Shown here in pieces: positions 2,891 through 62,314 of a DNA stretch of 64,000 bases (positions within the stretch are counted from its first letter, which is position 1; each line of letters opens with the position of its first letter). The notes beneath the pieces were generated by a model. It worked only from the letters and a program-made list of their open reading frames with translations, was not told where the DNA came from and made no database searches. The position numbers were made by a program, and so were the translations under genes. The DNA is taken from the NCBI RefSeq assembly GCF_964204645.1, contig NC_134027.1, forward strand, positions 20,262,485 to 20,326,484, read 5' to 3'. The stretch comes from Tubulanus polymorphus. Lineage: Eukaryota; Nemertea; Palaeonemertea; Tubulaniformes; Tubulanidae.

Positions 2891-3191
2891 ATGTGTACAA
2901 GTCTGGATTTTTTCCCTTCTTTCACATACATTGTTCTTTATTTTCAAACGATCTCGAAACGTTCCTCGATAGCCATATGCAACTGCATACTCGATAAGAC
3001 GATAACCTTAAACCATCTGGTGTTACTTAACGCCCTGACCATACAGTGATGTTCGTTGATAATCCTATTATCTTACTCTTCAAACAAGAGCTTTTCTAGA
3101 ACTAAAATACATCTATATGAAGTAAATCATGCAAAGTTTATTTCAGTGGTCTGACACCAAAGTTTTCTTGGCTTAAAAAATTAAAAATAAA

Positions 3192-3280
3192 TTCTCACAC
3201 GCTCGAATTTATTTTTATTTTTCACTCACTCAACCTTTCAACCTCTGATATGAAACAACACTTACCCTATTACTCTAATA
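3192..3280 (+). repeat. Left terminal repeat of element A
   Basis: Contains ATTCTCACACGCTCGAATTT, then TTTCAACCTCTGATATGAAA and CCCTATTACTCT. The reverse complement of the second block recurs at the right end (10299-10348), and both blocks recur in the terminal palindromes of element B. Confidence 0.7.
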
Positions 3281-3359
3281 ATATTCATATATATGAACAT
3301 TATATAAATGAATATCATATTAATGAAATCAATTTTAATTAAAAAAATATGTATAATAA

Positions 3360-3701
3360 ATGGAAAGTAAACAAACACACGGTGAATTCTTAGATAGAAT
3401 CAAAGATACTACAAATGTCAAATCTGTAGATTATAGATTCAAAAAGTTAACAGAATTAACATTACATAAGAAATATTTAATTACAAATATTGAAACAATT
3501 ACTAATAGATATGGTAATAAATCAGTTATTCACTTAGAATATGAAGGATTAAAAGGAAATGAATATAAATTTAGAACATATTTACCAGATAGATTTCATA
3601 GATTATCTAGTGACGATAAAGAAAAAGTGTGTTCTGGTGATTTCTATTTCATATGTAAAGGTAAGAATGAAAAAGGATGTCATGATATAGATTTCGAATA
3701 A
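3360..3701 (+). CDS. Element A left terminal gene, function unknown (possible small nucleic-acid-binding protein)
   Basis: An intact 113-residue frame, the first inside the left terminus of element A, starting at the ATG of TATAATAAATGG. The N-terminal part (GEFLDRIKDTT) is followed by a segment of alternating hydrophobic residues (KKYLITNIETITNRYG) and an acidic end with KVCSGDFYFICKG. It is charged, has no membrane segment, and its strand-rich look would suit a small OB-type fold, but that is a guess. A diverged homologue (shared RINDTT / RIKDTT, CSGEFY / CSGDFY) sits inverted at the right end of the element (9905-10231). That position parallels the zinc-finger gene repeated at both ends of element B, and suggests a role tied to the termini, such as replication or end binding. 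Confidence 0.6.
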   Translation: MESKQTHGEFLDRIKDTTNVKSVDYRFKKLTELTLHKKYLITNIETITNRYGNKSVIHLEYEGLKGNEYKFRTYLPDRFHRLSSDDKEKVCSGDFYFICKGKNEKGCHDIDFE

Positions 3702-3718
3702 AAAAATACATAAAATAA

Positions 3719-4045
3719 ATGCAAGATAAATTAAAAGAATATAGTATATTTGTTGATTCAAGAAGACTTACATATTATATATCTCATAATTTATTGATAC
3801 AACTAGATAGAGAATTTAGAAGTTGTGTTGATTTAAAATTAGTAGATATTAGCTTATGTAACTCATTTTACAATATATCGAATAAAACTATTGAACATGG
3901 AGCCTTTTTAATTTTTAATAAAAATGAAAATGAATGGTTCTATACAAATTTAAAACTAAGGTTATATAATTTAGAAACATTATCACAAGAAATTAATAGA
4001 AAAGCCTGGCACAAATTAGGTAGTCATTCCGGGTTTAACCATTAG
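3719..4045 (+). pseudogene. Element A gene 2, interrupted, unknown virion-type protein
   Basis: Starts at ATG 3719 in ATAAAATAAATG, 17 bases after the previous gene. The 108-residue open part (DSRRLTYYISHNLLIQLDRE near the start) ends at a TAG at 4043. Coding-like sequence continues to about 4172, where a frameshift around 4120 is followed by a stretch ending FFNK whose TAA directly abuts the next ATG. The original gene was therefore about 150 codons. It is rich in predicted beta strands and lacks a membrane segment; a minor structural protein is possible but unproven. Confidence 0.5.
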
Positions 4046-4173
4046 ATTATTAAAAGTGATAGTTCTGATAAAATAAAGATAAGGTTATCCCATAGTGAAA
4101 AACATATAAATTTATCTTAAAAAAACCTATAGCTAAACTGTTAGGAATTCCACCAAATTTTTTTAATAAATAA

Positions 4174-4413
4174 ATGAGTGATAATAAGTAGATAATAACT
4201 GGTTTATATAATGGAGCATTACTATCAGTGGGAACGGTTGGTTATACAATGTTATTGAAGAAAGTATTCAAAATGGGAAATATTAATGTTGATAGATTTG
4301 ATATCAATGATATTCTAAAATTAACATTAGCAGTAACTTTATCTTATTTAACAATTGATTATTTGGAAAAACAAAAATATTCCTCCTATGAACGCATAAT
4401 TTTTGTTAAATAA
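4174..4413 (+). pseudogene. Element A gene 3, small protein with a hydrophobic segment
   Basis: ATG 4174 follows a T-run and AATAAATAAATG. A TAG occurs at codon 6 (4189), after which the frame is open to the TAA at 4411. The body contains a Gly-rich hydrophobic stretch (GALLSVGTVGYTMLL) and a second one (LKLTLAVTLSYLTI) around the phrase VDRFDINDI, suggesting a two-segment membrane protein of about 80 residues. Its stop codon TAA sits directly against the ATG of the next gene within GTTAAATAAATGG, so the genes are packed end to start. Confidence 0.55.
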
Positions 4414-4416
4414 ATG
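4401..4416 (+). promoter_or_regulatory. Stop-start promoter-like motif of element A
   Basis: TTTTGTTAAATAAATG: a T-run followed by TAAATAAATG, in which the upstream gene's TAA and the downstream ATG are adjacent. Similar motifs precede the ATGs at 3360, 3719, 4174, 4784, 5233, 6584 and 8341, and the core gene of element B at 58024. It resembles the TAAATG element of poxvirus late promoters in form only. Confidence 0.6.
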
Positions 4417-4757
4417 GCTTCTGCATAACTATTATAGGATCGGCAATTGTTAACGATTTAGCATTTACAGGTGGTGGTTATTTATTTAAGCATATTGATA
4501 AAATGGTTCATTATCAGACAAAATTATATGGATTATATAAACAAAGAATTATACAATCAGAAAATTTCACATAGAGATTTTCAATCAGTCGATGATGCTA
4601 TGAGTTTATATAACGCAGTAACAAATAAAGAAAAATTACATCTATATAAACCTACAATATCAGATAATTATTCCCCAAGTAATGAACAACAAAAATATGA
4701 AATAATTTGGATTTAACTGTTATTGTTATATTTGTAGCATATAAATTTACAAATTAA
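4414..4757 (+). pseudogene. Element A gene 4, broken small membrane-type protein
   Basis: Starts at ATG 4414 immediately after the previous stop, meets a TAA at codon 5, and continues in a neighbouring frame with a hydrophobic Gly-rich stretch (DLAFTGGGYLFKHI) before shifting again near 4530 into the frame open to 4716 (DFQSVDDAMSLYNAVTN). The last hydrophobic residues (TVIVIFVAYKF) lie in yet another frame at about 4717-4755. At least two frameshifts and a stop make it non-functional. The order, hydrophobic N-terminus then charged helix then hydrophobic end, suggests a membrane-linked virion protein. Confidence 0.5.
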
Positions 4758-4770
4758 TTATATATTATTT

Positions 4771-4786
4771 TTTTGTTAAATAAATG
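4771..4786 (+). promoter_or_regulatory. Gene-start motif, element A gene 5
   Basis: TTTTGTTAAATAAATG, identical over 16 bases to the copy at 4401-4416 although the surrounding coding sequences are unrelated. That identity indicates selection on the motif itself. Confidence 0.6.
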
Positions 4787-5204
4787 GATGATAAAGTTGA
4801 TAATATTGATATTATTCCTCAGGATATAAATAAAACTAAATTAAAATTATATCTAGAAAAACAAATATTAGAATTTGAAAATGACTTAAAGATAAAAAAG
4901 AAAATATATTGAAAATCTAGAACTATATATTATTTATTATAAGTGGTTCAGTTACAATTAGTTCTGTAATAACATTTTTAGCAATATTCAGTCCATAAAC
5001 ACCTTTAGCTATATCAATTGGCGTGCTAGGTTTAATTTCAAGTGTTTTAACTGGTATAAGCTCAAAATTGAATATAAAAAGTAATAAAGAAAAATAAAAT
5101 CTAATATAAAAGAAATTAATAAATTAAAAAATAGATTAGATTATATAATTAGTTTGAATGGAAATATTACAACTGAAGAACAAGATAAATTATTAAAAGA
5201 ATGA
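4784..5204 (+). pseudogene. Element A gene 5, acidic helix plus two hydrophobic segments, broken
   Basis: ATG 4784 in TTTTGTTAAATAAATGG. The first 40 codons (DDKVDNIDIIPQDINKTKL) form an acidic, helix-prone stretch, ended by a TGA at about 4909. The following frame encodes hydrophobic segments (SVITFLAIF and ISIGVLGLISSVLTGI) and a Lys/Glu-rich helical tail to a TGA near 5204, with a TAA and a small frameshift inside. It looks like a small membrane-anchored protein with a coiled tail. I do not recognise a named family. Confidence 0.5.
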
Positions 5205-5232
5205 ATAAATTATTAATTTTTTTATTATATAA

Positions 5233-6390
5233 ATGGTAGATAGTTTTCCAAAAGCTTTCCAATATAATAGATTAATTAAATATAACATTCCAGCAATAGA
5301 TTTTAATAAAAATATTTACATACAAAAATAAAGTTTTAAATTCATTAATTAATTTAGATATTTATGTTTCTGAAACTAATAATTTCAATGTAAAGATGGA
5401 AAATATTTTTCATGTATACTTAATTATTTTTAAAAAATTGAAAGATGAAAAACGATGGTTATTAAAATCTAATATGAAGTAATGAAGTATTGGCAGAACC
5501 AATTACATTATGCAGTTTATTGTGCAACAACAGGATGTGGAATTAGTTGGAATGATCATTTAAATAAATCAAAATATTATAAATCCAAAGTTTATTTAGA
5601 TTTCATACATACTTTCAAATAAGATTAATATTAAATAAATTAGAGTGTCTAGATATTTTAAAGAATTAGATAACAATATTAATTTGTCAAGGTTTTATAA
5701 AGTTTGTAATGAATATAATATAAATATGAATAATTCTGATTTTCGAACAAAAATTGGAACAATAAGATCACTTCCTTGTCCTGAAAATATTTTACAATAT
5801 TGCACACTTTTCATACCATCTAATAGTTTTTATTATATCTATAATAATAAATTAGGTTATGGTAAAATAGAAAATATGGATTTAAAAACATTAAATTCCA
5901 ATAAATTACCGAAATTTTATGACAATTTAAAACAAGAAAACAATAATGGTTGGGTTTATTTCATTTTAGAAAATAGTGAAGGTTTTACAAAATCAGGTAT
6001 ACAAAGAATAAATCAATCTATAAGAATATAGTTGATTTGTATATTAGGATCATAGGTTGAAACAAGATCCCCAATAATTGGAAATTTAAATACATCATTT
6101 GATACACAAAAACAATTCACAGTATTATTTGAAGATTATATTCATAATGATAAAAACAGATCGATTCCAGAAATCATTGTAAGATATCAAAATTATTTAG
6201 ATAAATCTCATGTAAGATTAAATTATTGTATAGGTCCTAATTTATTAATTATTTCTGATGATTTAATATTAAAAATGGGAAATATAATTGGTTATAATAA
6301 TTTGATTAAAACTGCAACAATAAATAATTCATTTGGATTAAATGATATATATATATATAAAAATTATGACTGCTCCAAAACTAATGGAAG
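5233..6390 (+). pseudogene. Element A genes 6-7, broken structural-type protein(s)
   Basis: ATG 5233 lies in ATTATATAAATGG and opens VDSFPKAFQYNRLIKYNIP, lost to a frameshift near 5325. Later blocks in other frames are clearly coding-like: YWQNQLHYAVYCATTGCGI at about 5484-5540 and, from 5645 to 6031, an open 128-codon block starting RYFKELDNNINLSRFYKV. Beyond a stop near 6030 a further 110 codons (IGNLNTSFDTQKQF onward) run to about 6390. A TATTAAATAAAT motif at 5628-5640 is followed by ATT where ATG would be expected, in frame with the 5645 block, so either a separate gene lost its start codon or this is one long gene. Penton-like or minor capsid function is a guess from context. Confidence 0.5.
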
Positions 6391-6582
6391 GTGAAAACAT
6401 TTAAAAAAATATTCAATCAACTGAAACTAAAACAAAGAATATTAAATCGAAAAATGATTTTAGAATAAATATTACAATACATCAGAAAATATAAAAACTG
6501 AAAATACTAAATTAGCTATAACTTGTATAGGTATGATAAAGGAGGAATATTATATTTCAAATTTTGATTTTTATAAGATATA
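6366..6582 (+). pseudogene. Element A gene 8, small broken gene
   Basis: An ATG at 6366 opens MTAPKLMEGENI and is stopped by TAA at about 6402; the reading then continues, with a frameshift near 6480, into ENIKTENTKLAITCIGMIKE and ends at a TAA inside the next gene-start motif. Lys/Thr-rich, without membrane segments. I do not recognise it. Confidence 0.35.
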
Positions 6583-6583
6583 A

Positions 6584-7048
6584 ATGGATGTAGAAGGTGG
6601 ATAAGATATTCCAATGGATACTTTTGATGAACCCGCTATTACCGATGAACAACAACCTGATTTTAATTAAACTAATACTGATAATGATAATGAAACAGCA
6701 TATAATTCTAATCTAAATAATGATGATGGATATGATGATGATTTTAGTGGATATAGTGATTATGAAGAATATAAAGATGATATTGAAACAAATGAAAAAT
6801 TAATAGATAATTTTAAAGCTCCCGATAGGAAAGTAATTAAAACTAAAAAAGAAAGAAAACATTTAATTAATAGATTTAAAAAAACAGATAATCCTATATT
6901 GAAAAAATATTTATTAATCATAAAACATAGTGTAACAAATACAGTTATTGATGAAATATTACCAAAAGATGTAACATATAACATTGAACCAGACGATATT
7001 TCAGAACAAATTAGAAAAGGTGATCAATTTTTCATGTCTAATTTATAG
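6584..7048 (+). pseudogene. Element A gene 9, acidic protein with in-frame stops
   Basis: ATG 6584 follows TTATAAGATATAAATGG. In-frame TAA codons appear at codon 7 and near 6669, and a TAG at about 7046; otherwise one frame stays open. The composition is strongly acidic (NDDGYDDDFSGYSDYEEY) and then turns basic (KVIKTKKERKHLINRFKK). An acidic-to-basic protein of this sort could be a core or scaffold protein, but nothing specific can be claimed. Confidence 0.5.
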
Positions 7049-7116
7049 TTTAAAAATGATTCATAGTTTATAACCTTGAATTAAATGATAAACTTGTATG
7101 AATAAAATTATCTAAA

Positions 7117-8295
7117 ATGGGGCAAGAAGATCTGTTCCATCCTGGAATGTTAGCAAGATCTTCAATTGAAAAATCAAAAGGTGGTTCAAAATTTATCAGA
7201 ATTATATGGAATGCACTCGAAAGAGTAAATGAAGAAGAACCAATTGAGAATATTTATATTAACAAATATTCACCATTTAAAAATCCAAATTCAAATCCTT
7301 TTAATGTTGATCCAGAAATGAAAGAGTATGGAGATCGATTAGATAAATTATGAACTTCAACACCAGAAACATCGAGAAGAGACACTCAACCAATTAGTAA
7401 TGATTCAAGTCAATTAGAAGTAGTATTAGAAAAAACAAATTGAAAGACCAAATAATTCAGAAGAACAGATAAATGGTACTTTAGATACATCTGATACTGT
7501 AACCGGAACAAATCAAATGCAACTTGAATTGGAAGGATTTCTTGATTTAACTGAAGAAGAATTAAAAATATTTCCTGAACAAACACGATGAGAAATTAAA
7601 GGTGTGCAAAAATCAGCTGATTAAATTGCGCACGATAAAAGTATAAGAGATTTTAAGATTAAAACTTTAAAAAAAAGAATTATCTGAATCAAATGAAGAA
7701 TTAAACATTTAAAATCTCATTTAGATCATCAATTAATTGATTAAATTGAATATAGACAAAAAGAATTATGTTTAGAAAAAGAAATTGATGATTTAAAATA
7801 TAATTTAGAATTACAGAAAGAAGAAAAAAAAACTATTATTAAAATCATATATGATTATTGTATTAATAGATTAAAAGTTATTATTAAAGATTTAATGATA
7901 AAACCAAATTCTAAAGTATCATTGAAAGAATGAATAAAATTATTATCTAAATTAGAATGTATCACAATTCTTTCAATTCTAACAGCTGTAACTAATGATA
8001 TTTACAACAATAGGTTTAGCTATATCAAATTCATTAAAAGCTACACCAAATCCTAATAAACCAGATAAACCACCAAATGATAATAATCTATACAAGATAA
8101 AGTTAAGGATGGTTTAAAAGAATTAGCAAAATATCTATGGGAACTATCTAAAGAATCTGCCGCAGCTTGACCTGGATTTATAGCATCAATTGTTGGTTTT
8201 GTTTTAAAATCTGCTGGAAATATTATTAGTTTTGCCGCAGAACATATAATTTTATTTCTAATAACAGCTGTTAGTGCTACTATTTTGGACTAGTA
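7117..8295 (+). pseudogene. Element A gene 10, long coiled-coil protein with C-terminal membrane segments, broken
   Basis: The open start (7117-7353, 78 codons; HPGMLARSSIEKSKGGSKF) is cut by a TGA. Coding-like sequence resumes in the next frame at about 7430 with acidic (LDLTEEELKIFPEQ), then long Glu/Lys/Leu-rich helical blocks from 7640 to 7930 typical of a coiled coil. From 7960 to 8290 the frames encode a Pro/Asn linker (ATPNPNKPDKPPND), LKELAKYLWELSKE, and two hydrophobic stretches (FIASIVGFVLKSAGNIISFA, then HIILFLITAVSA). At least five stops or frameshifts are present. The architecture suggests a virion or membrane-fusion-type structural protein anchored at its C-terminus. Confidence 0.55.
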
Positions 8296-8328
8296 AACAT
8301 GATAAAAGATAAACAAGTAATAATTATT

Positions 8329-8343
8329 TTTCTTAAATAAATG
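8329..8343 (+). promoter_or_regulatory. Gene-start motif, capsid-like gene of element A
   Basis: TTTTCTTAAATAAATG with the ATG at 8341, and nearly the same string as in front of the core gene of element B at 58024. Confidence 0.55.
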
Positions 8344-9549
8344 GGTGGGAGTTATATAAATCCTTCTAAGAATTGTAGAATATCTAATGCAATTTAAGCA
8401 GAGAGATCTCATCATATGATTACTCATAATCCTTCTAATATTAATCCCGATGAAACTTTATATGTTAGAATTCCTCGATTAACATAAAATACTTTTTATG
8501 TTTTAAATAGTATTTATTTATCAGCTGATATAAAAGTAACTGGTAATAATCATAATTATGTCGTAGATAATGTTGGAAGATATTTAATTAGAAAATTAAT
8601 TATAAAGATTGGACCAGAAACAGTTTTTTTCATTAGATGATTATAATTTATTTACGCATTGTAATGATTTATGGTTAACAAAAGAAAATAGAAATAATAT
8701 GATATTTCAAGGCATCCAATCAGAAAAACAAAATAAATTAAGACCAGAAGCTAATAATTGATTAAAACGATTTATGGAAGCAAATATAAAATTCCATTAG
8801 ACTTCGAATTGATAAATAGTAATGCGCCTTTATATAAATATGCTATTCAAGAAGATATTATATTCGAAATAACAATTGCTCCTGTTAATGAAATTGTATT
8901 ATATAGCGTTGATAAAGATATGGATTATAAATTATCAAATAAATGTTTAGAATATGACACAGTAACTAATGAAAATATTGCTAACACAATTCAAACTAAA
9001 TACAATCAAGGATTTTCATTATTCTATGATTATATTGATAAATTTAAAACTGTAACGATTAATGCAAATGATGAAATAATTGATGAGAATATTAACTTCC
9101 CAAGAAGATCTATTAAAGGTATATTAATACTTTTTACCATTGCAACATATTCTAATGGTGCAATTAAAGTTGATAATTATTATAATCCTGAAATATCAAA
9201 AGTAGAAATAAATAACTATCGAAGGAATAGCAAATAAAATATTTTGTCAGGGAATGAGAATGATTGATCAATGGGTTAAATTAAAAAATATTTTATGAAT
9301 GGAAAAATAAAATCATCTGAAGATTGTAATATTAATCAAATTGATTACAATACCGGCAATAAATATACAGTATGGTTAGATTTTAGGACGAAAGAGGATA
9401 AATTATACATGGTTCTGGGAAAAAAATTGCAAAATACAAAAGATGAAATACAATTATTTATGAAAAAGAAAAAAGGAGGTTTAAATTATAAAATGCATAT
9501 TTATATCATATCTGACGCGCAATTAAATATTATATTATTAGTTTTCTAA
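8341..9549 (+). pseudogene. Element A gene 11, major-capsid-like protein, broken
   Basis: ATG 8341 follows TTTTTCTTAAATAAATGG, the clearest copy of the motif. The product would be about 400 residues and resembles a family of uncharacterised capsid-like proteins that I associate with DNA-virus-like repeats in invertebrate genomes: a Gly/Asn-rich start, INPDETLYVRIPRLT, VDNVGRYLIRKLIIKIG, an open block at 8758-9237 ending in an inner strand-rich region (FPRRSIKGILILFTIATYSNG) and a C-terminal block at 9295-9549 (YTVWLDFRTKEDKLY; KKKKGGLNYKMHIYI). Breaks: TAA at about 8395, TAA near 8486, frameshifts near 8625 and 8757, and stops between 9237 and 9295. The capsid assignment rests on general resemblance and gene context, not on an alignment. 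Confidence 0.55.
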
Positions 9550-9904
9550 CACAATTAATCGTGTTAAATGTTTTATCAATTAATTTATTTGAAACGAATA
9601 TAATTTCAGACTGTTGATATTCTGAATGTATTATGTAATGTAGTCTTTTATTTTGTAATTAGATGATACAATTATTTCTATTTATTATACAAATATCTTA
9701 TTAAATTTGTGTTTATTTTTTGTTTTTATTCATATTTAGTTCATTAGGAATGAATTCATTAAATCTTATTTTCAGTCCTGCTAGTTGATTCAACAAAATA
9801 TAATCATCGAATCTTATTTTCAGTCTTACTCCTTACTACATTCAAAATTAATTATTTAAATCTTATTTTAGGTCCTATAATCTAATGCACTAAAATTGAA
9901 TTTA
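9550..9904. other. Right-hand non-coding segment of element A with short repeats
   Basis: AT-rich and without a recognisable gene. The word AATCTTATTTTCAGTCCT or close variants recurs about every 50 bases (near 9763, 9812, 9859 and 9905), giving four degenerate copies. Confidence 0.5.
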
Positions 9905-10231
9905 TCAAATCTTATTTTTATTCAAATCTATAATATGATATCCGTTTTTATCTTTACCTAAGTATGTTGAATAAAACTCACCTGAACATAAATCTTCAAC
10001 ATCTTTTAATAATTTATTGAAGCTATTTAGTAAATAAGTTTAAATTTCTATTTAGTAAATAAGTTTAATTTTCTTCTTTAAACCATCAAACATATTTTTG
10101 ATAAATATATATGTTAGTTCATTTGATTTCTTATACTTATTTTCTGTAATTCTAGCAGCAGTTGTATCGTTTATTCTCTGAAGAAAGCTATTTTGGTTAT
10201 GCGATTGTTTGTTGTCTTTATTTCCTACCAT
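9905..10231 (-). pseudogene. Element A right terminal gene, inverted diverged homologue of the left one
   Basis: On the minus strand an ATG at 10231 in AATTAAATGG opens a frame with SFLQRINDTTAARITENKYK, matching the left gene's EFLDRIKDTT and YRFKKLTEL. After a small duplication (two copies of a TTTACTAAATAG-containing unit, 10015-10065) and an in-frame TAA, the reading continues as LLKDVEDLCSGEFYSTYLGK, matching KEKVCSGDFYFICKG, and stops at 9905. The shared order and motifs show common descent, but the DNA has diverged strongly, unlike the near-identical terminal genes of element B. The gene is broken. Confidence 0.65.
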
Positions 10232-10298
10232 TTAATTACTAAATCTTTGTTAAATTCAAAATTATTCTACATACACAAATTACAATTATACGTATTAG

Positions 10299-10348
10299 TA
10301 AAGGTGGGCTTTCATATCAGAGGTTGAAGTCGGGAAAAATAAAAACAT
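10299..10348 (-). repeat. Right terminal repeat of element A
   Basis: GGGCTTTCATATCAGAGGTTGAAG followed by a GGAAAAATAAAAAC stretch is the inverse of the left terminus (3210-3265) and of the inner end repeats of element B. Confidence 0.65.
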
Positions 10349-10350
10349 CA

Positions 10351-11426
10351 AAATAGTGAAATATATAGCTATGTTATCATTTGTTTATCGAGAAAAAAAT
10401 CATATTTTTCTATAGATGAATCAATAGCAGAAATTATGAATTATTTAACCATTTGAATATTTTGATACCTTTGGTATAAAAACCCACACCATTAACCTGC
10501 TCATTTGACCGGTGGCGAATAAAATGATAAATTTCTCGAGATTTCGGGGAATTTTTTCAAAAGTCCTGCCACTTTTCAGTGTTCGGGCATCTCAACGATT
10601 GTAAGACAGCTCTACTGCATGCCAGTAGTGCAGTTAGAGCAGCCACCTTGGACTAGCCCGTTATCTAGCGGACAATTAAGTCAGTAACTCAGTCACGCCT
10701 GAGGTGACATTGCCCACATTTCTAGGTTTTCATCGTCACTCCCACGTGACCAGGCCAAGGTTTTAAGCTCAATGAATCACCAAGACAACGCCAAGATTTT
10801 TTTGCTTGCTTAATATGGTGAAAAACCTAATCATTGAGATTTGAAGTTAATTCTCAAATTAATTTTTCCTTACTGACGCAAGAAGCATAAACTCAGTTTC
10901 AAAACCTGCAACCATTCTTTATTAAGAACAGGATCATGACTGATCACTTTGTATAGTTGATCGGCATCAGCGTACATCAGCTTTACGAGTCTGTATATTT
11001 CATTCCCCCGAAATTGAGATTGATAGAAACTCCTGACGAAATAGATATTCATTTGATAATTGCGGATTTTATTTATATCATTCGCAAGTGTTGTTTATAA
11101 TAGAATGATCAAAATGAAAATGGATATTTCGAGGACGATTTCATTCAAATCAAGTAAATAGTCGAGGATTCCAAAATCTAGCATTAGATTCATAACTGCA
11201 TCGTTTGATAAAGTTATTTTTCATTACTCGAGAGAACCTCTGCATTTTCCTTAAATTGAACCGGAGTTCGTATATCAATTACTGCGTCATTATGTTTCTG
11301 GCATACGTGCGTTTTAACTTAGATCGAAATCTTTCGAATTGGAATATTTTTTGGTGGTAGAATTATGAATCTAACATCACTGCAATTGCCATCGGGAGTG
11401 TTGGCAATCGACTGTCGAGTATATGT
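10351..11426. other. Intergenic stretch
   Basis: No gene recognised. A 60-codon minus-strand frame at 10870-11052 has no familiar content. Confidence 0.45.
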
Positions 11427-12000
11427 TCAATTTCATAGTTTATCCCTTATGGATTTTCGGTAGAATGGGCAATATATTTACGTTAGTTTTACTCAGTCTA
11501 TTGCACCATGAATTAGACCTCGTTGTCATTGGCTGCGTCCGATCTCATATATTTGAATACAACGTCACTGAAAAGGATTAGCTTGGCTTCGGGAACGGGC
11601 TTTGGTATCTACGTCTTTTACACTTCTGAATTAATTTGTAAGTTTCTACTCGTTACGGCAAATATTTCGTGTATTTGAAGTCTAGAGAGAACGTTTGCCG
11701 TTTGGATGCCCTTAAGGGCAGCTATATCTCTTACCAAACCACGGCGTCGCACTTTGATTGTATCTCAATGGATCATCGTCATAGCGGTAGAGGGTGCCAT
11801 GTCCAATTTATTTGGCATTCGTGTCACGAATGGACAGCAGAAGAACTACATACTTCTTTTTGTAAAAACTGAAGAGGATGCCATTTTGCGATATTTATTA
11901 TGATGTACATAACAGCGACGCTCTACACCGTTCCATATCTTATGAACTTCTCGTGTATTGTTTTTATAGCTATAAGACTGGTATAAGACCTGGACAGCTT
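11427..12000 (+). pseudogene. Degraded rhodopsin-class GPCR
   Basis: Several receptor landmarks occur in order but in different frames. A TM1-like segment IVYPLWIFGRMGNIFTLVLL begins near 11436. A DRY-region phrase SLERTFAVWMPLRAAISLT appears at about 11680-11735, followed by a TM4-like stretch TLIVSQWIIVIAVEG to about 11790. TLYTVPYLMNFSCIVFIAIR at about 11915-11975 resembles TM5. Stops and frameshifts separate the blocks and the TM2-TM3 part is lost. The sequence is FMRFamide-receptor-like, as is the intact receptor at 1.5-2.6 kb, but in the opposite orientation. Confidence 0.55.
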
Positions 12001-13242: not shown

Positions 13243-13271
13243 TCATTGAGCACACAGAATAGCTTTGAATT
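13243..13271 (-). CDS. Calmodulin-like gene, exon 5 (terminal)
   Basis: Acceptor TTCTAATTTCAG then AATTC. The split Glu codon (G + AA) supplies position 12 of EF-hand 4, followed by FKAILCAQ and TGA. Without this exon the reading would run past an intact donor and lose that Glu. Confidence 0.75.

Positions 13272-47308: not shown

Positions 47309-47400
<92 letters not shown>
47309..47400. repeat. (TA)n microsatellite
   Basis: About 80 bases of uninterrupted TA followed by TATTATATATTATTAG. Confidence 0.95.
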
Positions 47401-51205: not shown

Positions 51206-51307
51206 CTTCGAAACCCCCTTCGAATTTTTTTCGGGATAATTGGTACATATGAATTTACATCCGACCCATTTATTTTCCAAAACGCCAAAATGTTCCTTTT
51301 TTCGTTA

Positions 51308-53865: not shown

Positions 53866-55310
53866 TTCGTGTGAAATGCATCCAAGTTTTCTGTTTCAGT
53901 ATGTTATATCTGCGTTAATCCGTTAAGGAAATAAAAACCAGTTTTTGCAATTGAAACTCGTAAAAAGAAAATTCGCTCAAAGCTTTCTATGTAGAATATA
54001 TGGCAAATCTATTGTCTCATTGTATAGTGGTAGTGTTAAGTTATGGATCCTGAAAATATTTCTGACAAAATGTCGATTCTCTAACAAAAGAAATATATAT
54101 CAACTAAAGAGTAACTAACTTAAAGTACCAAAATGATAAAAAATGAAAAAGGCTTTTTACACAAAACAATGACAGCCGTTTTTGCTGATAATTCAAATTT
54201 CATATATATCTTTTCATATATATCTATCAACCCTTTTCAGCCACCACATTTAGTCAACGAAATGATGTCAACGAATCCAATTAGTGTATGCCAACCATTA
54301 GCCGGTATAATCCTATCCCGAACGAATTGAAAATGACCTGCCAGTCGCCATCGAAGTGAATGTAGGCGCATACGTACATACGTACCAATTGAAATATTCC
54401 ACTCAATGTATACTTATATCCATTTTTGAATGGAACAGCACGCGCCAAATACGGTTATATTCTGAATGGGTTATTTACAGATAATTTCAGTATTCATTTC
54501 TCCACGGGGAAGTCAATATTTAGTGCGTGCCGGTGAGGTCTAATAGGCATGAAATATTCCAGCACAGCCCACTTATAGAATTTACAGTGCCAGTGGCCGG
54601 TCAAAGTTAATCAAAACCTGGTGTTTTACTTGTAGTTATGATTACGAATCAGAATTCTGATGAAGGGTCTACTTAATCGAATTTCGTGTTGGTAATTTGT
54701 ATAACGTTTGCCAACGGGTCGCACATTTCGGAGGTTTTGTTAACGTACATATAACAAACCTCAGGAAAGATTTTTAAAATTAAAAATGATCCATTGGAGT
54801 ATTTTTCTAGTTGGCAACTAGAAAAATACTCGAATCGATTATGTATCAGTGGAATGTCGAAACTTAATTCGATTAATGATACAAATTTGGTTTAAATTGA
54901 ATATTTATCAGGCCTAAATCATATTTAGAAAATGCATTGCCCTAGTCTATAATAATATTTCGACTTAAATTTATTCGAAGCATTCGTAATACATAAATCA
55001 CATTGATCAAAAATCTATGCACAAATCTACATCGACTTATTAAACGATTCGATTTTGAATTTTACCTGATTCCTTTTCTGCAATGATAAATGCTCAGCTC
55101 TTCACGGATTTCTTATAATGAAGGGTCGGTTCTAAGCCTCGCCGTCGGACCTTTTTTTTCTGCAGATTTTAACGACATTAAAAGTTTTTTTCAAGCGTTG
55201 ATTGGCCGCCAGCAAACTGTGGCATTGTTTGGCATTGGCATTGTTGTGAACTGGTACATCAACCGAGTCATCACCCTAATATGTAAGGTGTCGCGTGTAA
55301 TCAGCTGTAG
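53866..55310. other. Intergenic stretch
   Basis: No gene recognised. It should contain the GST promoter, which I cannot delimit. Confidence 0.4.
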
Positions 55311-55316
55311 AATATG

Positions 55317-55666
55317 AGTAATAGGGATAATAGGCTTTCATACCAAAGGTCGAACGGTCGAGCTCATAAAAAATGAAAAACATGAAAATAATAACAATTT
55401 CTACTTGAATTAGTCGCGAAACTCATAAAAAATGAAAAATAATTCTCACACACTCGAATTTATTTTTCATTTTTACTCGCTAGAAAAAAGTGTGAGTAAA
55501 GTGTGAGTGAAATAAATTCGAGTGTGTGAGAATTATTTTTCATTTTTTATGAGTTTCACTCCTAATTCAAGTAGAAATTGTTATTATTTTCATGTTTTTC
55601 ATTTTTAATGAACTCGCCCCTTCAACCTTTGATATGAAAGCCTATTATCCCTATTACTCTTAAAAT
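55317..55666. repeat. Terminal palindrome, left end of element B
   Basis: The outermost ~165 bases (AGTAATAGGGATAATAGG onward) are followed, after a ~20-base centre near 55490, by their own slightly diverged reverse complement ending CCTATTATCCCTATTACT at 55666. The end can therefore fold as a long hairpin. Confidence 0.8.
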
Positions 55667-55912
55667 ATTCATATACATGAATAAAATATATATGAATAAC
55701 ATATAAATTGATAGATTATTCAATATAAAAGTGTGAGTGAAATAATTCATATTTAAAACATTGAATATTTATATTTGAATGAGTTTTAATACAAATTTTG
55801 TTATAAAATGAAGAAAGAAGAAGAAGAACCCAACTTTAAAATCGAAATCAATGAAACCAATAAATAATTTTCACAGTTTTACATTAAAAATTATATTTCA
55901 GCAACAAATTTA

Positions 55913-56428
55913 GTGTCCGCAAGACATTATAAAATCGATAACATAACTATGATTAATCAAGTATTATCAAATGAAACTTATTTAATTACTGAACTAGTAG
56001 ATACTTTTGATAATGGTGTTAAAAATCCTAAAGTATTCAATACAGTTTTAAATTTTAAAGGAACTTTAGATGAAAACATAATTAATATTCTTAAAACTCC
56101 TTTCAATGAAAGAAATAATGATATAATACTTTCAAAAGATTACAATGATTTGATTAACTTAAGAATTGAAAAAAGACAATTATATTATTTCAATTTTGAT
56201 AATAAACAAATTATCTATAACGAAAATTCATCAAATATTGGAATTCAATGTGAATTAGATAATGAAAAATCATTTAAAGATATAGCAGTTCAATGTAATT
56301 TAGATGATGAATTTAGAAAATTCAATCCTAATGAAAAAATTCATTGTTATTGCGGAGGTAAATATTCAAAATCACATAAATCAAAGCATTATGAAACAAT
56401 TAAACATAAAAACTTGCGTAAAGAGTAA
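55913..56428 (+). CDS. Element B terminal gene, left copy: zinc-finger protein of unknown function
   Basis: The open part is 171 codons. The same frame extends upstream to a better ATG at 55808 (ATAAAATGAAG), interrupted only by one TAA at codon 20. Near the start are DNITMINQVL and YLITELVDT, somewhat like the strand pattern of element A's terminal genes; the tail HCYCGGKYSKSHKSKHYETI has paired Cys and His residues of a small zinc finger. It probably binds nucleic acid or the element's ends. Its copy at 61202-61717 shares the same internal TAA. Either the protein starts further in at a non-ATG codon, the stop is bypassed, or both copies derive from one damaged parent. Confidence 0.6.
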   Translation: MSARHYKIDNITMINQVLSNETYLITELVDTFDNGVKNPKVFNTVLNFKGTLDENIINILKTPFNERNNDIILSKDYNDLINLRIEKRQLYYFNFDNKQIIYNENSSNIGIQCELDNEKSFKDIAVQCNLDDEFRKFNPNEKIHCYCGGKYSKSHKSKHYETIKHKNLRKE

Positions 56429-56489
56429 CAATTCTACATTATAATTATTGAATTGAGTTAAATGATTTAAATATCTAATAGACTGTTAA

Positions 56490-57908
56490 AATGATAAATT
56501 GTTTGACAGTTGAAATGATAAATTGTTTGACAGTTGAAATGATAAATTGTTTGACAATTGAAATGATAAATTGTTTGACAGTTGAAATGATAAATTGTTT
56601 GACAGTTGAAATGATAAATTGTTTGACTGTTGAAATGTTAAATTGTTTGACTGTTGAAATGATAAATTGTTTGACAGTTAAAATGATAAATTGTTTGACA
56701 GTTGAAATGATAAATTGCTTGACAGTTGAAATGATAAATTGTTTGCAAGTTGAAATGATATATTGTTTGACAGATGAAATGTTAAATTGTTTGACAGTTG
56801 AAATGATAAATTGTTTGACAGTTGAAATGATAAATTGTTTGACAGTTGAAATGATAAATTGTTTGACAGTTGAAATGATAAATTGTTTGACAGTTGAAAT
56901 GATAAATTGTTTGACAGTTGAAATGATAAATTGTTTGACAGTTGAAATGATAAATTGTTTGACAGTTGAAATGATAAATTGTTTGACAGTTGAAATGATA
57001 AATTGTTTGCAAGTTGAAATGATATATTGTTTGACAGATGAAATGTTAAATTGTTTGACAGTTGAAATGATAAATTGTTTGACAGTTGAAATGATAAATT
57101 GTTTGACAGTTGAAATGATAAATTGTTTGACAGTTGAAATGATAAATTGTTTGACAGTTGAAATGATAAATTGTTTGACTGTTGAAATGTTAAATTGTTT
57201 GACTGTTGAAATGATAAATTGTTTGACAGTTGAAATGATAAATTGTTTGACAGCTGAAATGATAAATTGTTTGATAGTTGAAATGATAAATTGTTTGACA
57301 GTTGAAATGATAAATTGTTCGACTGTTGAAATGATAAGACAGTTGAAATGATAAATTGTTTGACAGTTGAAATGATAAATTGTTTGACAGTTGAAATGAT
57401 AAATTGTTTGACAGTTGAAATGATAAATTGTTTGACAGTTGAAATGATAAATTGTTTGACAATTGAAATGATAAATTGTTCGACTGTTGAAATGATAAGA
57501 CAGTTGAAATGATAAATTGTTTGACAGTTGAAATGATAAATTGTTTGACAGTTGAAATGATAAATTGTTTGACAGTTGAAATGATAAATTGTTTGACAGT
57601 TGAAATGATAAATTGTTTGACAATTGAAATGATAAATTGTTTGATAGTTGAAATGATAAATTGTTTGACAGTTGAAATGATAAATTGTTCGACTGTTGAA
57701 ATGATAAGACAGTTGAAATGATAAATTGTTTGACAGTTGAAATGATAAATTGCTTGACAGTTGAAATGATAAATTGTTTGACAGTTGAAATGATAAATTG
57801 TTTGGCAGTTGAAATGATAAATTGTTTGACAGTTGAAATGATAAATTGTTTGGCAGTTGAAATGATAAATTGTTTTACAGTTGAAATGTTAAATTGTTTG
57901 GCTGTAAA
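56490..57908 (+). repeat. Left 24-bp minisatellite array of element B
   Basis: About 59 tandem units of GTTGAAATGATAAATTGTTTGACA with point variants and a few shortened units (57333, 57493, 57703). Some variants recur in blocks (56743-56790 and 57008-57056), so a higher-order repeat of about 265 bases is present. The 14-base core TTTGACAGTTGAAA is nearly self-complementary. Confidence 0.95.
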
Positions 57909-58023
57909 TTTAATTGTTATTTGATTTAATCATTTAAAAGTTTAATATTTAACAATGATGATAAAATATTTAATTAAAAACTAGCAAATATTTTATAAAC
58001 TGTTTAATTTTTCTCTTAAATAA
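57909..58023. promoter_or_regulatory. Leader with gene-start motif of the element B core
   Basis: Very AT-rich, ending TTTTTCTCTTAAATAAATGG with the ATG at 58024. It matches the motif before the capsid-like gene of element A. Confidence 0.55.
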
Positions 58024-58242
58024 ATGGATGGTTTCATCCAAACTGGGAAAAGTGATTTGAAACATTATTTAGTAGCAGGTGGATTAATATTGGCCGCGCT
58101 TTTCTTTTATTATGAAAATATCAGTAAGGATTTGATTAATGAAAATATAAAATTGAGCAAGAAATTAAAGAAGTTAAATGGAAACAATCACAGGAAGTAT
58201 AACAATAAAAAATTTAACGATTTAAATGATTTGGAGGATTAA
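58024..58242 (+). CDS. Element B core gene 1, small single-span membrane protein
   Basis: 72 residues. One hydrophobic segment HYLVAGGLILAALFFYY at about residues 14-30 is followed by a Lys/Asn-rich helical tail (ENIKLSKKLKKLNGNN) and an acidic end. There is no cleavable signal. The start is fixed by the strong motif. Its size and design resemble the small membrane-type proteins of element A (genes 3-5), although I see no direct sequence match. The function is unknown; a membrane or virion anchor is possible. Confidence 0.6.
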   Translation: MDGFIQTGKSDLKHYLVAGGLILAALFFYYENISKDLINENIKLSKKLKKLNGNNHRKYNNKKFNDLNDLED

Positions 58243-58288
58243 AACAGCATCTTTTAATTTAATTTATTCTATATATTTTGACTATAAA

Positions 58289-58594
58289 ATGAGTGAAAAT
58301 AAGGTATTAGAAATATTACATCTAATATATAAAAATCAACAGAATATTAAATCAATTATTATGCTTACAGGTTTATTTTCATTCTCAGTTTATACTATAA
58401 AACAGTTGTTAGAATTCTATGATTGCTGTAAAATTAGATACACTGAATTAATAGAAAATATGAATTATATTTCAGATAGATTGAATAATATTAAATGCTG
58501 TGAAATATGTAATAAAAGATATACAAATTTAAAGAGTTTAAAAACTCATAAATATGTTCATGAACTTGATGAAAAATTATATGATTCAAAATAA
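58289..58594 (+). CDS. Element B core gene 2, membrane segment plus C2H2 zinc finger
   Basis: I chose the ATG at 58289 (ACTATAAAATGAG), not the earlier one at 58226, which overlaps the previous gene. 101 residues: a helical start (ENKVLEILHLIYKNQQN), a hydrophobic segment IIMLTGLFSFSVYTI, then a classical C2H2 finger CEICNKRYTNLKSLKTHKYV-H with CX2CX12HX3H spacing near the C-terminus. A membrane-linked zinc finger is odd for a cell gene and suits a viral or element protein. Confidence 0.6.
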   Translation: MSENKVLEILHLIYKNQQNIKSIIMLTGLFSFSVYTIKQLLEFYDCCKIRYTELIENMNYISDRLNNIKCCEICNKRYTNLKSLKTHKYVHELDEKLYDSK

Positions 58595-58687
58595 GAAATC
58601 GACTGTTAAATTAGCTGAAAATATAAAATATATTAGTTGAAATGTATGAAAATGAGTAAATTATATTTACGTTAAAAAAGGAGGGTT

Positions 58688-58812
58688 GAGGTGTCAATGT
58701 ATTAAATACGTATTAAATACGTATCAAATACGTATTAATGGTATTAAATACGTATCAAATACGTATTAATGGTATTAAATACGTATTGATGGTATTAAAT
58801 ACATATTATGCT
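58688..58812. repeat. Short palindromic tandem repeat in the element B core
   Basis: The word AAATACGTAT(T/C) recurs seven times, with ATGGTATT spacers. Each ATACGTAT is a perfect palindrome. Confidence 0.85.
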
Positions 58813-59044
58813 TTATTTCCGAAAATGAAGTAACAGAAGTAATTTATGTTTTAATTCATTCAAGTATGATATTGTAAATTCTTTACATTTGACTAGGATA
58901 ATACAAGAGTGATATTAGTTAGTTGGCTTATTCAATAAGAGAAACAATGAAATAATACAAGAGTGATACTAACAGTTAAAGTTATTGAATTTCTTGTTAA
59001 ATCTATTTGAATTCTAGTAAATTCTTGTTAACCAATAGCGCGAC
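58813..59044. other. Right part of the element B core
   Basis: Non-coding. It contains two direct copies of AATAATACAAGAGTGATA (about 58897 and 58951). Confidence 0.6.
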
Positions 59045-61145
59045 AACTGTCAAACAATTTATCATTTCAACTGTCAAACAATTTATCATTTCAACTGTCA
59101 AACAATTTATCATTTCAACTGTCAAACAATTTATCATTTCAACAGTCGAACGATTTATCATTTCAACTGTCAAACAATTTATCATTTCAACTGTCAAACA
59201 ATTTATCATTTCAACTGTCAAACAATTTATCATTTCAACTGTCAAACAATTTATCATTTCAACTGTCTTATCATTTCAACTGTCAAACAATTTATCATTT
59301 CAACAGTTGAACAATTTATCATTTCAACTGTCAAACAATTTATCATTTCAACAGTCGACAATTTATCATTTCAACTGTCAAACAATTTATCATTTCAACA
59401 GTCGAACGATTTATCATTTCAACTGTCAAACAATTTATCATTTCAACTGTCAAACAATTTATCATTTCAACTGTCAAACAATTTATCATTTCAACTGTCA
59501 AACAATTTATCATTTCAACTGTCTTATCATTTCAACTGTCAAACAATTTATCATTTCAACAGTTGAACAATTTATCATTTCAACTGTCAAACAATTTATC
59601 ATTTCAACAGTCGACAATTTATCATTTCAACTGTCAAACAATTTATCATTTCAACTGTCAAACAATTTATCATTTCAACTCTCAAACAATTTATCATTTC
59701 AACAGTCGAACAATTTATCATTTCAACTGTCAAACAATTTATCATTTCAACTGTCAAACAATTTATCATTTCAACTGTCAAACAATTTATCATTTCAACT
59801 GTCTTATCATTTCAACTGTCAAACAATTTATCATTTCAACAGTCGAACAATTTATCATTTCAACTGTCAAACAATTTATCATTTCAACAGTCGACAATTT
59901 ATCATTTCAACTGTCAAACAATTTATCATTTCAACTGTCAAACAATTTATCATTTCAACTCTCAAACAATTTATCATTTCAACAGTCGAACAATTTATCA
60001 TTTCAACTGTCAAACAATTTATCATTTCAACTGTCAAACAATTTATCATTTCAACTGTCAAACAATTTATCATTTCAACTGTCTTATCATTTCAACCGTC
60101 AAACAATTTATCATTTCAACAGTCGAACAATTTATCATTTCAACTGTCGAACAATTTATCATTTCAACAGTCGAACAATTTATCATTTCAACTGTCAAAC
60201 AATTTATCATTTCAACTGTCAAACAATTTATCATTTCAACTGTCAAACAATTTATCATTTCAACAGTCGAACAATTTATCATTTCAACCGTCAAACAATT
60301 TATCATTTCAACAGTCGAACAATTTATCATTTCAACTGTCGAACAATTTATCATTTCAACAGTCGAACAATTTATCATTTCAACTGTCAAACAATTTATC
60401 ATTTCAACTGTCAAACAATTTATCATTTCAACTGTCAAACAATTTATCATTTCAACAGTCGAACAATTTATCATTTCAACTGTCAAACAATTTATCATTT
60501 CAACTGTCAAACAATTTATCATTTTAACTGTCAAACAATTTATCATTTCAACAGTCAAACAATTTAACATTTCAACAGTCAAACAATTTATCATTTCAGC
60601 TGTCTTATCATTTCAACTGTCAAACAATTTAACATTTCAACTGTCAAACAATTTATCATTTCAACTGTCAAACAATTTATCATTTCAACTGTCAAACAAT
60701 TTATCATTTCAACTGTCAAACAATTTATCATTTCAACTGTCAAACAATTTATCATTTCAACTGTCAAACAATTTATCATTTAAACTGTCAAACAATTTAT
60801 CATTTCAACTGTCAAACAATTTATCATTTCAACTGTCAAACAATGTATCATTTCAACTTGCAAACAATTTATCATTTCAACTGTCAAACAATTTATCATT
60901 TCAACTGTCAAACAATTTATCATTTTAACTGTCAAACAATTTATCATTTCAACAGTCAAACAATTTAACATTTCAACAGTCAAACAATTTATCATTTCAA
61001 CTGTCAAACAATTTATCATTTCAACTGTCAAACAATTTATCATTTCAACTGTCAAACAATTTATCATTTCAATTGTCAAACAATTTATCATTTCAACGGT
61101 CAAACAATTTATCATTTCAACTGTCAAACAATTTATCATTTTAAC
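59045..61145 (-). repeat. Right 24-bp minisatellite array of element B
   Basis: About 87 units of the same 24-bp repeat in opposite orientation. Breaks of the form CAACTGTCTTATCATTTCAA recur about every 270-280 bases (near 59263, 59520, 59801, 60079, 60598), a higher-order structure. It is longer than the left array, so the arms change copy number independently. Confidence 0.95.
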
Positions 61146-61201
61146 AGTCTATTAGATATTTAAATCATTTAACTCAATTCAATAATTATAATGTAGAATT
61201 G

Positions 61202-61717
61202 TTACTCTTTACGCCAGTTTTTATGTTTAATTGTTTCATAATGCTTTGATTTATGTGATTTTGAATATTTACCTCCGCAATAACAATGAATTTTTTCATT
61301 AGGATTGAATTTTCTAAATTCATCATCTAAATTACATTGAACTGCAATATCTTTAAATGATTTTTCATTATCCAATTCACATTGAATTCCAATATTTGAT
61401 GAATTTTCGTTATAGATAATTTGTTTATTATCAAAATTGAAATAATATAATTGTCTTTTTTCAATTCTTAAGTTAATCAAATCATTGTAATCTTTTGAAA
61501 GTATTATATCATTATTTCTTTCATTGAAAGGAGTTTTAAGAATATTAATTATGTTTTCATCTAAAGTTCCTTTAAAATTTAAAACTGTATTGAATACTTT
61601 AGGATTTTTAACACCATTATCAAAAGTATCTACTAGTTCAGTAATTAAATAAGTTTCATTTGATAATACTTGATTAATCATAGTTATGTTATCGATTTTA
61701 TAATGTCTTGCGGACAC
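61202..61717 (-). CDS. Element B terminal gene, right copy
   Basis: Identical to the left copy apart from one residue near the C-terminus (NWRKE against NLRKE). The upstream in-frame extension to an ATG at 61822 has the same single TAA. Confidence 0.6.
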   Translation of the reverse strand: MSARHYKIDNITMINQVLSNETYLITELVDTFDNGVKNPKVFNTVLNFKGTLDENIINILKTPFNERNNDIILSKDYNDLINLRIEKRQLYYFNFDNKQIIYNENSSNIGIQCELDNEKSFKDIAVQCNLDDEFRKFNPNEKIHCYCGGKYSKSHKSKHYETIKHKNWRKE

Positions 61718-61964
61718 TAAATTTGTTGCTGAAATATAATTTTTAATGTAAAACTGTGAAAATTATTTATTGGTTTCATTGATTTCGATTATAAAGTTGG
61801 GTTCTTCTTCTTCTTTCTTCATTTTTATAACAAAATTTGTATTAAAACTCATTCAAATATAAATATTCAATGTTTTAAATATGAATTATTTCACTCACAC
61901 TTTTATATTGAATAATCTATCAATTTATATGTTATTCATATATATTTTATTCATGTATATGAAT

Positions 61965-62314
61965 ATTTTAAGAGTAATAGGGATAATAGGCTTTCATATC
62001 AAAGGTTGAAGGGGCGAGTTCATTAAAAATGAAAAACATGAAAATAATAACAATTTCTACTTGAATTAGGAGTGAAACTCATAAAAAATGAAAAATAATT
62101 CTCACACACTCGAATTTATTTCACTCACACTTTACTCACACTTTTTTCTAGCGAGTAAAAATGAAAAATAAATTCGAGTGTGTGAGAATTATTTTTCATT
62201 TTTTATGAGTTTCGCGACTAATTCAAGTAGAAATTGTTATTATTTTCATGTTTTTCATTTTTTATGAGCTCGACCGTTCGACCTTTGGTATGAAAGCCTA
62301 TTATCCCTATTACT
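61965..62314. repeat. Terminal palindrome, right end of element B
   Basis: Mirror of the left one. The inner arm begins AGTAATAGGGATAATAGG at about 61972 and the outer arm ends CCTATTATCCCTATTACT at 62314. Confidence 0.8.

What the first reader, a model, noticed from the sequence alone, without database searches (positions are those of the whole stretch)
3180..62314. Two members of one virus-like element family (A and B) without visible replication genes
Seen: both have the same terminal words (ATTCTCACAC-CTCGAATTT; TCAACCT-TGATATGAAA; CCCTATTACT), TAAATAAATGG gene starts, inward-facing terminal genes and small TM or zinc-finger proteins. B has a 6-bp target duplication. Known: 6-bp duplications and long TIRs are features of Polintons/Mavericks. 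Inference: a distinct family of endogenous DNA-virus-like elements, A carrying the structural gene set and B being a satellite-like form. Neither shows a polymerase, integrase or ATPase, so a helper would be needed.
Basis: partly seen in the sequence, partly recalled or inferred. Interest (0 to 1): 0.9.

Follow-up and report, generated by a model that had tools for sequence, protein, structure and literature searches.

The report
Helper-dependent Polinton derivatives with palindromic ends
Two virus-like elements in an unidentified animal-like genome are stripped-down relatives of a virus-like transposon (Polinton) that is abundant there, one of them built by inverted duplication of an end, and many of the family's genes start with a signal that looks like a poxvirus late promoter.

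Summary
A (~3174-10355, outer edges eroded) and B (55317-62314) share terminal sequence, a start-codon signal and AT-richness; B has a 6-bp target duplication (AATATG); neither encodes a polymerase, integrase or ATPase. They are not a separate virus family: relatives in the same 268-Mb genome are Polintons. One 16,448-bp copy (C18, TSD GTCGTT) has type-B polymerase with an intein, rve-chromodomain integrase, A32-like ATPase, and a capsid protein whose homologue folds as a double jelly roll. A second (C4, 17,717 bp, TSD TATATA) has B-type palindromic ends around polymerase and capsid matches, so a helper class for B exists. A is a decayed derivative keeping the capsid block. B is end-duplicated: 1.7-kb inverted arms, each tipped by a ~343-bp imperfect palindrome; one such palindrome occurs alone with its own TSD. 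B-gene matches form 25 convergent pairs; in 5 of 6 tested pairs partner arms match best. New points: palindromic tips, defective-genome-like satellites, and a signal (T-run, then TAWATAA|ATG; ATAA before ATG at 14 of 15 gene starts of C18 versus 8 of 619 other ATGs) resembling poxvirus late promoters; only 1 of 3 B starts fits it. The poxvirus link is inference; the host is unidentified.

The parts
3174..3275 (.). A: remnant of left terminal palindrome (inner arm and centre; outer arm eroded)
   Evidence: aligns to B tip in pieces at 72-93%; outer arm not significant
3360..3701 (+). A: left terminal gene, 113 aa, open (called MESKQ here)
   Evidence: 81-87% aa identity to copies in L050 and L060-L064, 29% to the terminal gene of the C18 copy
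3719..4105 (+). A: 5' part of a gene colinear with a 253-aa gene (penton-like by position only), truncated
   Evidence: 74% over 126 aa
4174..4713 (+). A: pieces of the 73-aa and 140-aa small genes (broken)
   Evidence: 92% over 63 aa and 91% over 66 aa to L047
4784..5201 (+). A: 144-aa gene homologue (broken); TAAATAAATGG start
   Evidence: colinear with L047:3793 by eye
5233..6391 (+). A: homologue of the 462-aa gene (broken)
   Evidence: pieces 85% and 93% to L049
6584..8290 (+). A: homologue of the 479/539-aa coiled-coil gene (broken)
   Evidence: pieces 49-74% to L047/L049/L050
8341..9549 (+). A: major capsid protein gene, broken (stops and a frame change)
   Evidence: pieces 75-86% to L047 MCP; 2 stops in the first stretch and a frame change; fold of a homologue
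9908..10231 (-). A: right inward-facing terminal gene, related to MESKQ, broken
   Evidence: 71% DNA over 163 columns to the left gene; 36-54% aa
10307..10355 (.). A: right terminal inner arm; possible outer arm 10467-10487 (weak)
   Evidence: 76% to B tip; outer arm 13 of 500 shuffles
55311..55316 (.). B: left target-site duplication AATATG
55317..55658 (.). B: left tip, imperfect palindrome from AGTAAT to ATTACT (342 bp; 343-bp query 55318-55660 used in searches)
   Evidence: self-complementary 87% over 353 columns; 40 scored places in genome of 1,684 candidates
55317..57024 (.). B: left inverted arm
   Evidence: 497 nt 100%, 1,220 nt 98%
55778..56428 (+). B: left terminal gene (216 aa open in many copies; here a TAA and a frame difference near its start; open from ATG 55949 as 159 aa)
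56481..57900 (.). B: 24-bp tandem array, about 60 copies
58024..58242 (+). B: 72-aa protein with one hydrophobic stretch (by eye); T-run + TAAATAAATGG start
   Evidence: 85% aa in L057
58289..58594 (+). B: 101-aa protein with hydrophobic stretch (by eye) and one C2H2 finger
   Evidence: zf-C2H2_6 E 0.0012, below the curated cut-off; 85% over 54 aa in L057
59044..61149 (.). B: inverted 24-bp tandem array, about 89 copies
60606..62314 (.). B: right inverted arm
61202..61852 (-). B: right terminal gene, same TAA as the left copy
61973..62314 (.). B: right tip, imperfect palindrome
   Evidence: 100% to the left tip over the 343-base query
62315..62320 (.). B: right target-site duplication AATATG

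Best explanation
A and B are non-autonomous derivatives of one Polinton (Maverick) family that is abundant in this genome. Shown: relatives encode PolB, chromodomain integrase, A32-like ATPase and a capsid protein of a double-jelly-roll family, and the two copies whose both ends I read have AGTAAT...ATTACT ends and 6-bp TSDs; one of these has B-type palindromic ends. B consists of two inverted copies of one end around a short unique centre. Inferred: PolB and integrase of full-length members act in trans on B. The two 1.7-kb arms anneal into a panhandle during protein-primed replication, so one arm templates the other. The integrase inserts the linear DNA with 6-bp staggered cuts. B is therefore the transposon counterpart of a defective-interfering genome. 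The ~343-bp tip could fold into a hairpin and can occur alone. A arose by loss of the polymerase, integrase and ATPase regions and then decayed in place.
For: PolB PF03175 1.6e-20 and an intein; rve 1e-8 and chromodomain; Pox_A32 1e-10 to 2e-12 in 3 of 3 copies scanned; capsid homologue P0003 model pLDDT 90, Foldseek E about 1e-16 to iridovirus and PBCV-1 capsid proteins. C18 copy 16,448 bp, TSD GTCGTT; its end matches B's, 0 of 500 shuffles as good. In 8 other capsid loci tested, polymerase 8 of 8, ATPase 8 of 8, integrase 7 of 8 (L048 was fetched but not in that test). C4 copy 17,717 bp, TSD TATATA, B-type tip (206 columns 93%), PolB match at +2,825 and capsid match at +10,589. 6-bp TSDs at 6 of 6 B-type pairs with both tips fetched. 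Of 150 listed B-gene matches (of 154), neighbours within 12 kb: 25 convergent, 0 divergent, 1 same-strand; chance mean 4.8, maximum 11. Partner arm is the closest copy in 5 of 6 pairs. Same TAA in both B arms, absent from four other copies read. A's pieces colinear with relatives at 45-93% aa. Capsid median dN/dS 0.18 in 9 copies chosen as open.
Against: No transposition was observed. In 1 of 6 pairs (L006/L005, 93.6%) another copy is closer (95.0%), and in two of the five supporting pairs the margin is only 0.2-0.3 points. The C4 element's interior was not fetched; its gene content rests on coordinates of two searches, and the gene next to its right tip is a zinc-finger gene start, not B's terminal gene (by eye). 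No protease was found. B's terminal gene has no homologue in the protein database, and only decayed pieces tie it to a PolB-bearing copy (L065). A has no recognisable TSD.
Confidence: 0.85

Rival explanations
1. A and B are members of a distinct endogenous DNA-virus family, not Polintons.
For: B's terminal gene found no homologue in 5.8 billion proteins (14 candidates, none at E <= 0.001); MESKQ found one.
Against: Polinton hallmark genes, ends and TSDs in relatives; A's longest capsid piece is 84-89% identical to the 149 other scored places.
Confidence: 0.05
2. B is a composite element: two independent palindromic MITEs that happen to flank DNA and move it together.
For: A solo ~343-bp palindrome with its own 6-bp TSD exists (L023).
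Against: In 29 of 30 fetched palindromes the inner flank is the same 12-base sequence with at most one mismatch, and in the 6 pairs with both tips fetched the TSD lies outside the pair; B's arms continue for 1.7 kb.
Confidence: 0.1
3. The start-codon signal is only a translation context in AT-rich DNA, not a promoter.
For: A-rich contexts before ATG are common in AT-rich genomes (recalled); a GC-rich relative (L090) lacks the signal; 3 of 9 A/B gene starts lack ATAA before ATG, 2 of them in B.
Against: A T-run upstream co-occurs: both features at 9 of 15 gene starts of the C18 copy and 1 of 619 other ATGs; I know of no role of that run in translation.
Confidence: 0.4

Closest known systems
Polinton/Maverick elements
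   Same: PolB, rve integrase with chromodomain, A32-like ATPase, double-jelly-roll capsid protein, terminal inverted repeats, 6-bp TSD; the list of hallmarks is recalled
   Different: B-type ends are ~343-bp palindromes; end-duplicated non-autonomous forms; strong start-codon signal; no protease recognised
Adintoviruses (Adintoviridae; defined in passages of PMC11071296)
   Same: animal association (the host here is animal-like), chromodomain integrase, hexon-type capsid (an Adintovirus protein is among the Foldseek matches)
   Different: reciprocal hexon BLAST and the OTU-like PolB domain were not tested; four scans of viral contigs found no relative
Defective-interfering genomes of protein-primed linear DNA viruses (recalled, e.g. 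adenovirus)
   Same: inverted duplication of one end, loss of replication genes, presumed dependence on a helper
   Different: integrated in a host genome in many copies, with a conserved gene of its own (dN 0.11, dS 0.84 for the 72-aa gene in one comparison)
Virophages and Polinton-like viruses tied to large DNA viruses; PLV-like elements with entomopoxviruses (stated in a passage of PMC12220804; the primary paper is not held)
   Same: capsid-bearing, integrating; virophages share transcription signals with their giant virus (abstract start of PMC11464507 in the listing)
   Different: no helper large virus is known here; the family search for one did not complete

Membership tests
Polinton/Maverick (relatives in this genome) | family B DNA polymerase, organellar and viral type | tested here: met
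   PF03175 E 1.6e-20 on a piece of L052; 80 scored places of 2,482 candidates for a polymerase piece
Polinton/Maverick (relatives in this genome) | retroviral-type (rve) integrase, chromodomain | tested here: met
   PF00665 1e-8, above its cut-off; PF00385 2.3e-4, below its cut-off
Polinton/Maverick (relatives in this genome) | A32/FtsK-HerA packaging ATPase | tested here: met
   PF04665 in 3 of 3 pieces
Polinton/Maverick (relatives in this genome) | double-jelly-roll capsid protein | tested here: met
   model of homologue P0003 (75% identical to L047 MCP) matches iridovirus, PBCV-1 and mavirus capsid proteins
Polinton/Maverick (relatives in this genome) | terminal inverted repeats and 6-bp TSD | tested here: met
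   2 of 2 copies with both ends read: C18 GTCGTT, C4 TATATA
Polinton/Maverick (relatives in this genome) | adenain-like protease | tested here: inconclusive
   no Pfam match among the proteins scanned; not every gene was scanned and none by structure
Autonomous Polinton (A and B themselves) | own polymerase and integrase | tested here: not met
   no hit in the window
Polinton derivative (B) | family ends and 6-bp TSD | tested here: met
Polinton derivative (A) | 6-bp TSD | tested here: inconclusive
   outer ends eroded; none seen by eye
Adintoviridae | hexon reciprocally recognisable by BLASTp; OTU-like N-terminal domain of PolB | not tested
   no reference set at hand
Poxvirus-type late promoter | T-rich core, 5-7 bp, TAAAT(G/A) at the transcription start (passage of PMC5294985) | tested here: inconclusive
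   sequence layout fits most gene starts of the C18 copy and 6 of 9 A/B starts; no transcript data, no RNA polymerase identified

The most novel reading that the evidence does not exclude
An animal Polinton lineage whose genes are read by a poxvirus-like cytoplasmic RNA polymerase, making it a virophage-like hyperparasite of a large DNA virus of animals, stored in the germline in at least 150 scored copies; B is then a third-level parasite, a defective-genome satellite of that virophage with hairpin-capable ends.
Probability: 0.2. Interest if true: 0.88.

Novelty: new variant of a known kind. Interest (0 to 1): 0.58.

Why it matters
It shows a Polinton family that has given rise to end-duplicated satellites, with signs of arm-to-arm copying in the sequences; this makes protein-primed replication of Polintons testable from genomic data. 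If the start signal is a poxvirus-type promoter, animal Polintons would join the virophage-like elements and suggest a route by which animals could store antiviral hyperparasites.

Tried and rejected
Homology of B's terminal gene to MESKQ: suspected by eye, not supported by profile comparison (prob 0.2). A fold for MESKQ: model too poor (pLDDT 49), so no claim. Relatives in viral contigs: four protein scans found none; a motif scan gave 24 contigs with one match each, which I did not examine. A scan of prokaryote genome contigs gave one GC-rich, probably misbinned relative, L090, without the start signal; its frames are broken, so it is weak counter-evidence. Host: not identified; no Rfam family in the window. 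Searches of the genome for a large-virus late transcription factor (PF04947) and for PF03175 as families did not complete. Reassigned genetic code for A's stops: considered, set aside because other copies are open with the standard code. Literature: no held paper has any of six exact phrases for non-autonomous Polinton/Maverick; 'Polinton' with 'promoter motif' or 'late promoter' listed 11 papers each, mainly virophage and giant-virus papers by title (listings only); 'Maverick', 'Polinton', 'non-autonomous', 'palindrom' listed 10 papers, general by title (listing only). Inteins in Polinton polymerases are already reported (passage of PMC11071308).
Full report
Observation. The terminal words, the start-codon word and B's target duplication are present and far beyond chance. 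Both elements are about 20-29% GC in a setting of about 32-38% nearby. A-left aligns to B's tip. A's first terminal gene is open; the rest of A is broken by stops and frame changes or truncated. B runs from 55317 to 62314 (6,998 bp) between AATATG duplications; a script of mine used 55318-62313.

Genome context. The window lies in a 267.8-Mb assembly of 77 contigs. It contains Ty3/gypsy elements, one with a chromodomain match, and a GPCR matching a nematode chemoreceptor model, so the host looks like an animal; I could not name it. A's longest capsid piece has 150 scored places (itself included) of 1,325 candidates, 84-89% identical, many with an open 415-aa frame. B's tip has 40 scored places of 1,684 candidates, each found on both strands because it is a palindrome. 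B's terminal gene has 154 matches, 622 candidates. A-left's junction has 40 scored places of 1,477 candidates, the C18-type end 40 of 908, a polymerase piece 80 of 2,482, many open for about 1,355 aa. Candidate numbers are unverified first looks; scored numbers are capped.

Relatives. The copy on C18 runs from 135446 to 151893, 16,448 bp, with TSD GTCGTT and inverted ends starting AGTAAT. It sits in a 118-bp satellite (spacing read). In order: zinc-finger gene, PolB with an intein, a 433-aa zinc-finger gene on the minus strand, a 253-aa gene, small genes, capsid protein, chromodomain integrase, ATPase, two genes, terminal gene. The PolB frame is broken in its N-terminal part in this copy. In 8 other capsid loci tested, polymerase matched in 8, ATPase in 8, integrase in 7; the loci are 10-kb cuts, and one of the ten fetched, L048, was not in that test. 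A homologue of the capsid protein, P0003, folds with pLDDT 90 and matches double-jelly-roll capsid proteins of iridovirus, PBCV-1 and mavirus. The protein database gave 925 capsid matches, 120 listed, one named from a bivalve, Mactra antiquata.

A. Its pieces follow the order of the capsid block of relatives: terminal gene, start of the 253-aa gene, small genes, 462-aa and coiled-coil genes, capsid gene. Polymerase, integrase, ATPase, the 433-aa and the 113-aa gene are missing. Two A-type ends lie 7-9 kb from a capsid gene in fitting orientation (comparing by eye), but for the one on C4 reading showed that the A-type end belongs to an older element into which another had inserted. A further element (C9, L061 and L065) has an A-type end, MESKQ, zinc-finger gene, decayed PolB without intein, and at its other end pieces of B's terminal gene (75% over 48 aa, 69% over 32 aa) and, by eye, an A/B-type end. 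This links the ends of A and B to one parent group.

B. Its arms are 1.7 kb, each tipped by a ~343-bp palindrome that is 87% self-complementary. All 6 pairs with both tips fetched have 6-bp TSDs outside the pair. L023 is a single palindrome with TSD AGGGTA, 1 of 30 fetched. Of 150 listed gene matches, neighbours within 12 kb are 25 convergent pairs, 0 divergent, 1 same-strand, against 4.8 neighbours expected at random (maximum 11 in 500 trials). Two of the 25 pairs, on C2 and C14, have the same scores and spacing and may be one locus assembled twice. In 5 of 6 pairs the partner arm is the closest copy, in two of these by only 0.2-0.3 points; in the sixth another copy is closer. Both B arms share a TAA where four other copies read have a sense codon. 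B's 72-aa gene is conserved in L057 at 85% aa with dN 0.11 and dS 0.84, a single comparison. The B terminal gene gives a median dN/dS of 0.31, range 0.11-1.08, from few differences and non-independent arms; integrase 0.34 (0.20-0.87, 5 copies); capsid 0.18 (0.09-0.28, 9 copies), all chosen as open copies.

Helper. On C4 an element from 21374685 to 21392401, 17,717 bp, with TSD TATATA, has B-type tips (left 93% over 206 columns, right 84% over 412 columns to B's tip region; 222 nt identical between its own two tips); polymerase and capsid matches with open frames lie 2.8 and 10.6 kb from its left end. The gene beside its right tip is a zinc-finger gene start, not B's terminal gene (by eye). So a Polinton-sized member with B-type ends exists, as the satellite reading requires.

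Start signal. At 15 gene starts of the C18 copy ATAA precedes ATG in 14, against 8 of 619 other ATGs; TTTTT lies within 8-22 nt upstream in 10 of 15 against 33 of 619; both in 9 of 15 against 1 of 619. The T-run is centred at about -16 to -11, so TAAATG begins about 7 nt after it. The 15 genes come from one element, so they are separate genes but one lineage. Of 9 A and B starts shown, 6 have ATAA before ATG (5 of 6 in A, 1 of 3 in B). Six retrotransposon and other ORF starts of the window do not (0 of 6). A passage of PMC5294985 describes vaccinia late promoters as a core with T residues, 5-7 bp, then TAAAT(G/A) at the transcription start. I saw no RNA polymerase among the genes scanned, so a poxvirus-like polymerase would have to come from a helper virus. 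A passage of PMC12220804 states that Polinton-like elements occur with entomopoxviruses. The one outside relative with DNA at hand, L090, lacks the signal. I hold the promoter reading as somewhat more likely than not and the helper virus as speculation.

Verdict. A and B are ordinary in kind (Polinton derivatives) but unusual in form: palindromic tips, defective-genome-like satellites in number, and a strong start signal in the family.

Noticed in passing
L052:6097-6999 (C18:139096-139998): Intein-like insertion (PF14890 3.4e-6, below its cut-off; LAGLIDADG_3 7.9e-5) at the YFDTDS motif of the Polinton polymerase; the L050 and L065 polymerases lack it. Inteins in Polinton polymerases are already reported.
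   Followed up: partly
window 16413-21810 and 23731-29128: Two Ty3/gypsy copies in direct orientation 7,318 bp apart with the same ORF lengths.
   Followed up: no
window 56481-57900 and 59044-61149: 24-bp tandem arrays in inverted orientation whose unit keeps a frame open (MINCLTVE repeats), capable of a long foldback.
   Followed up: no
L051, L052 flanks of the C18 element: 118-bp satellite of about 45% GC around the insertion; by eye, in capped lists, Polinton matches lie mostly in the middle parts of the big contigs.
   Followed up: no
P0046: A partial capsid homologue is filed under Bartonella sp. CL32QHWL-2, probably contamination from an animal host.
   Followed up: no
window 52580-53188: Tandem repeats of 17 and 48 bp in a GC-richer stretch.
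   Followed up: no
C4:21372900-21393200 (L091, L092): Nested insertion: a B-tipped Polinton-sized element inside the start region of the zinc-finger gene of an older A-type element.
   Followed up: partly
L090: A 4.6-kb contig in a Diapherotrites archaeon MAG carries a Polinton capsid match and, by eye, ATPase and polymerase pieces; likely misbinned.
   Followed up: partly
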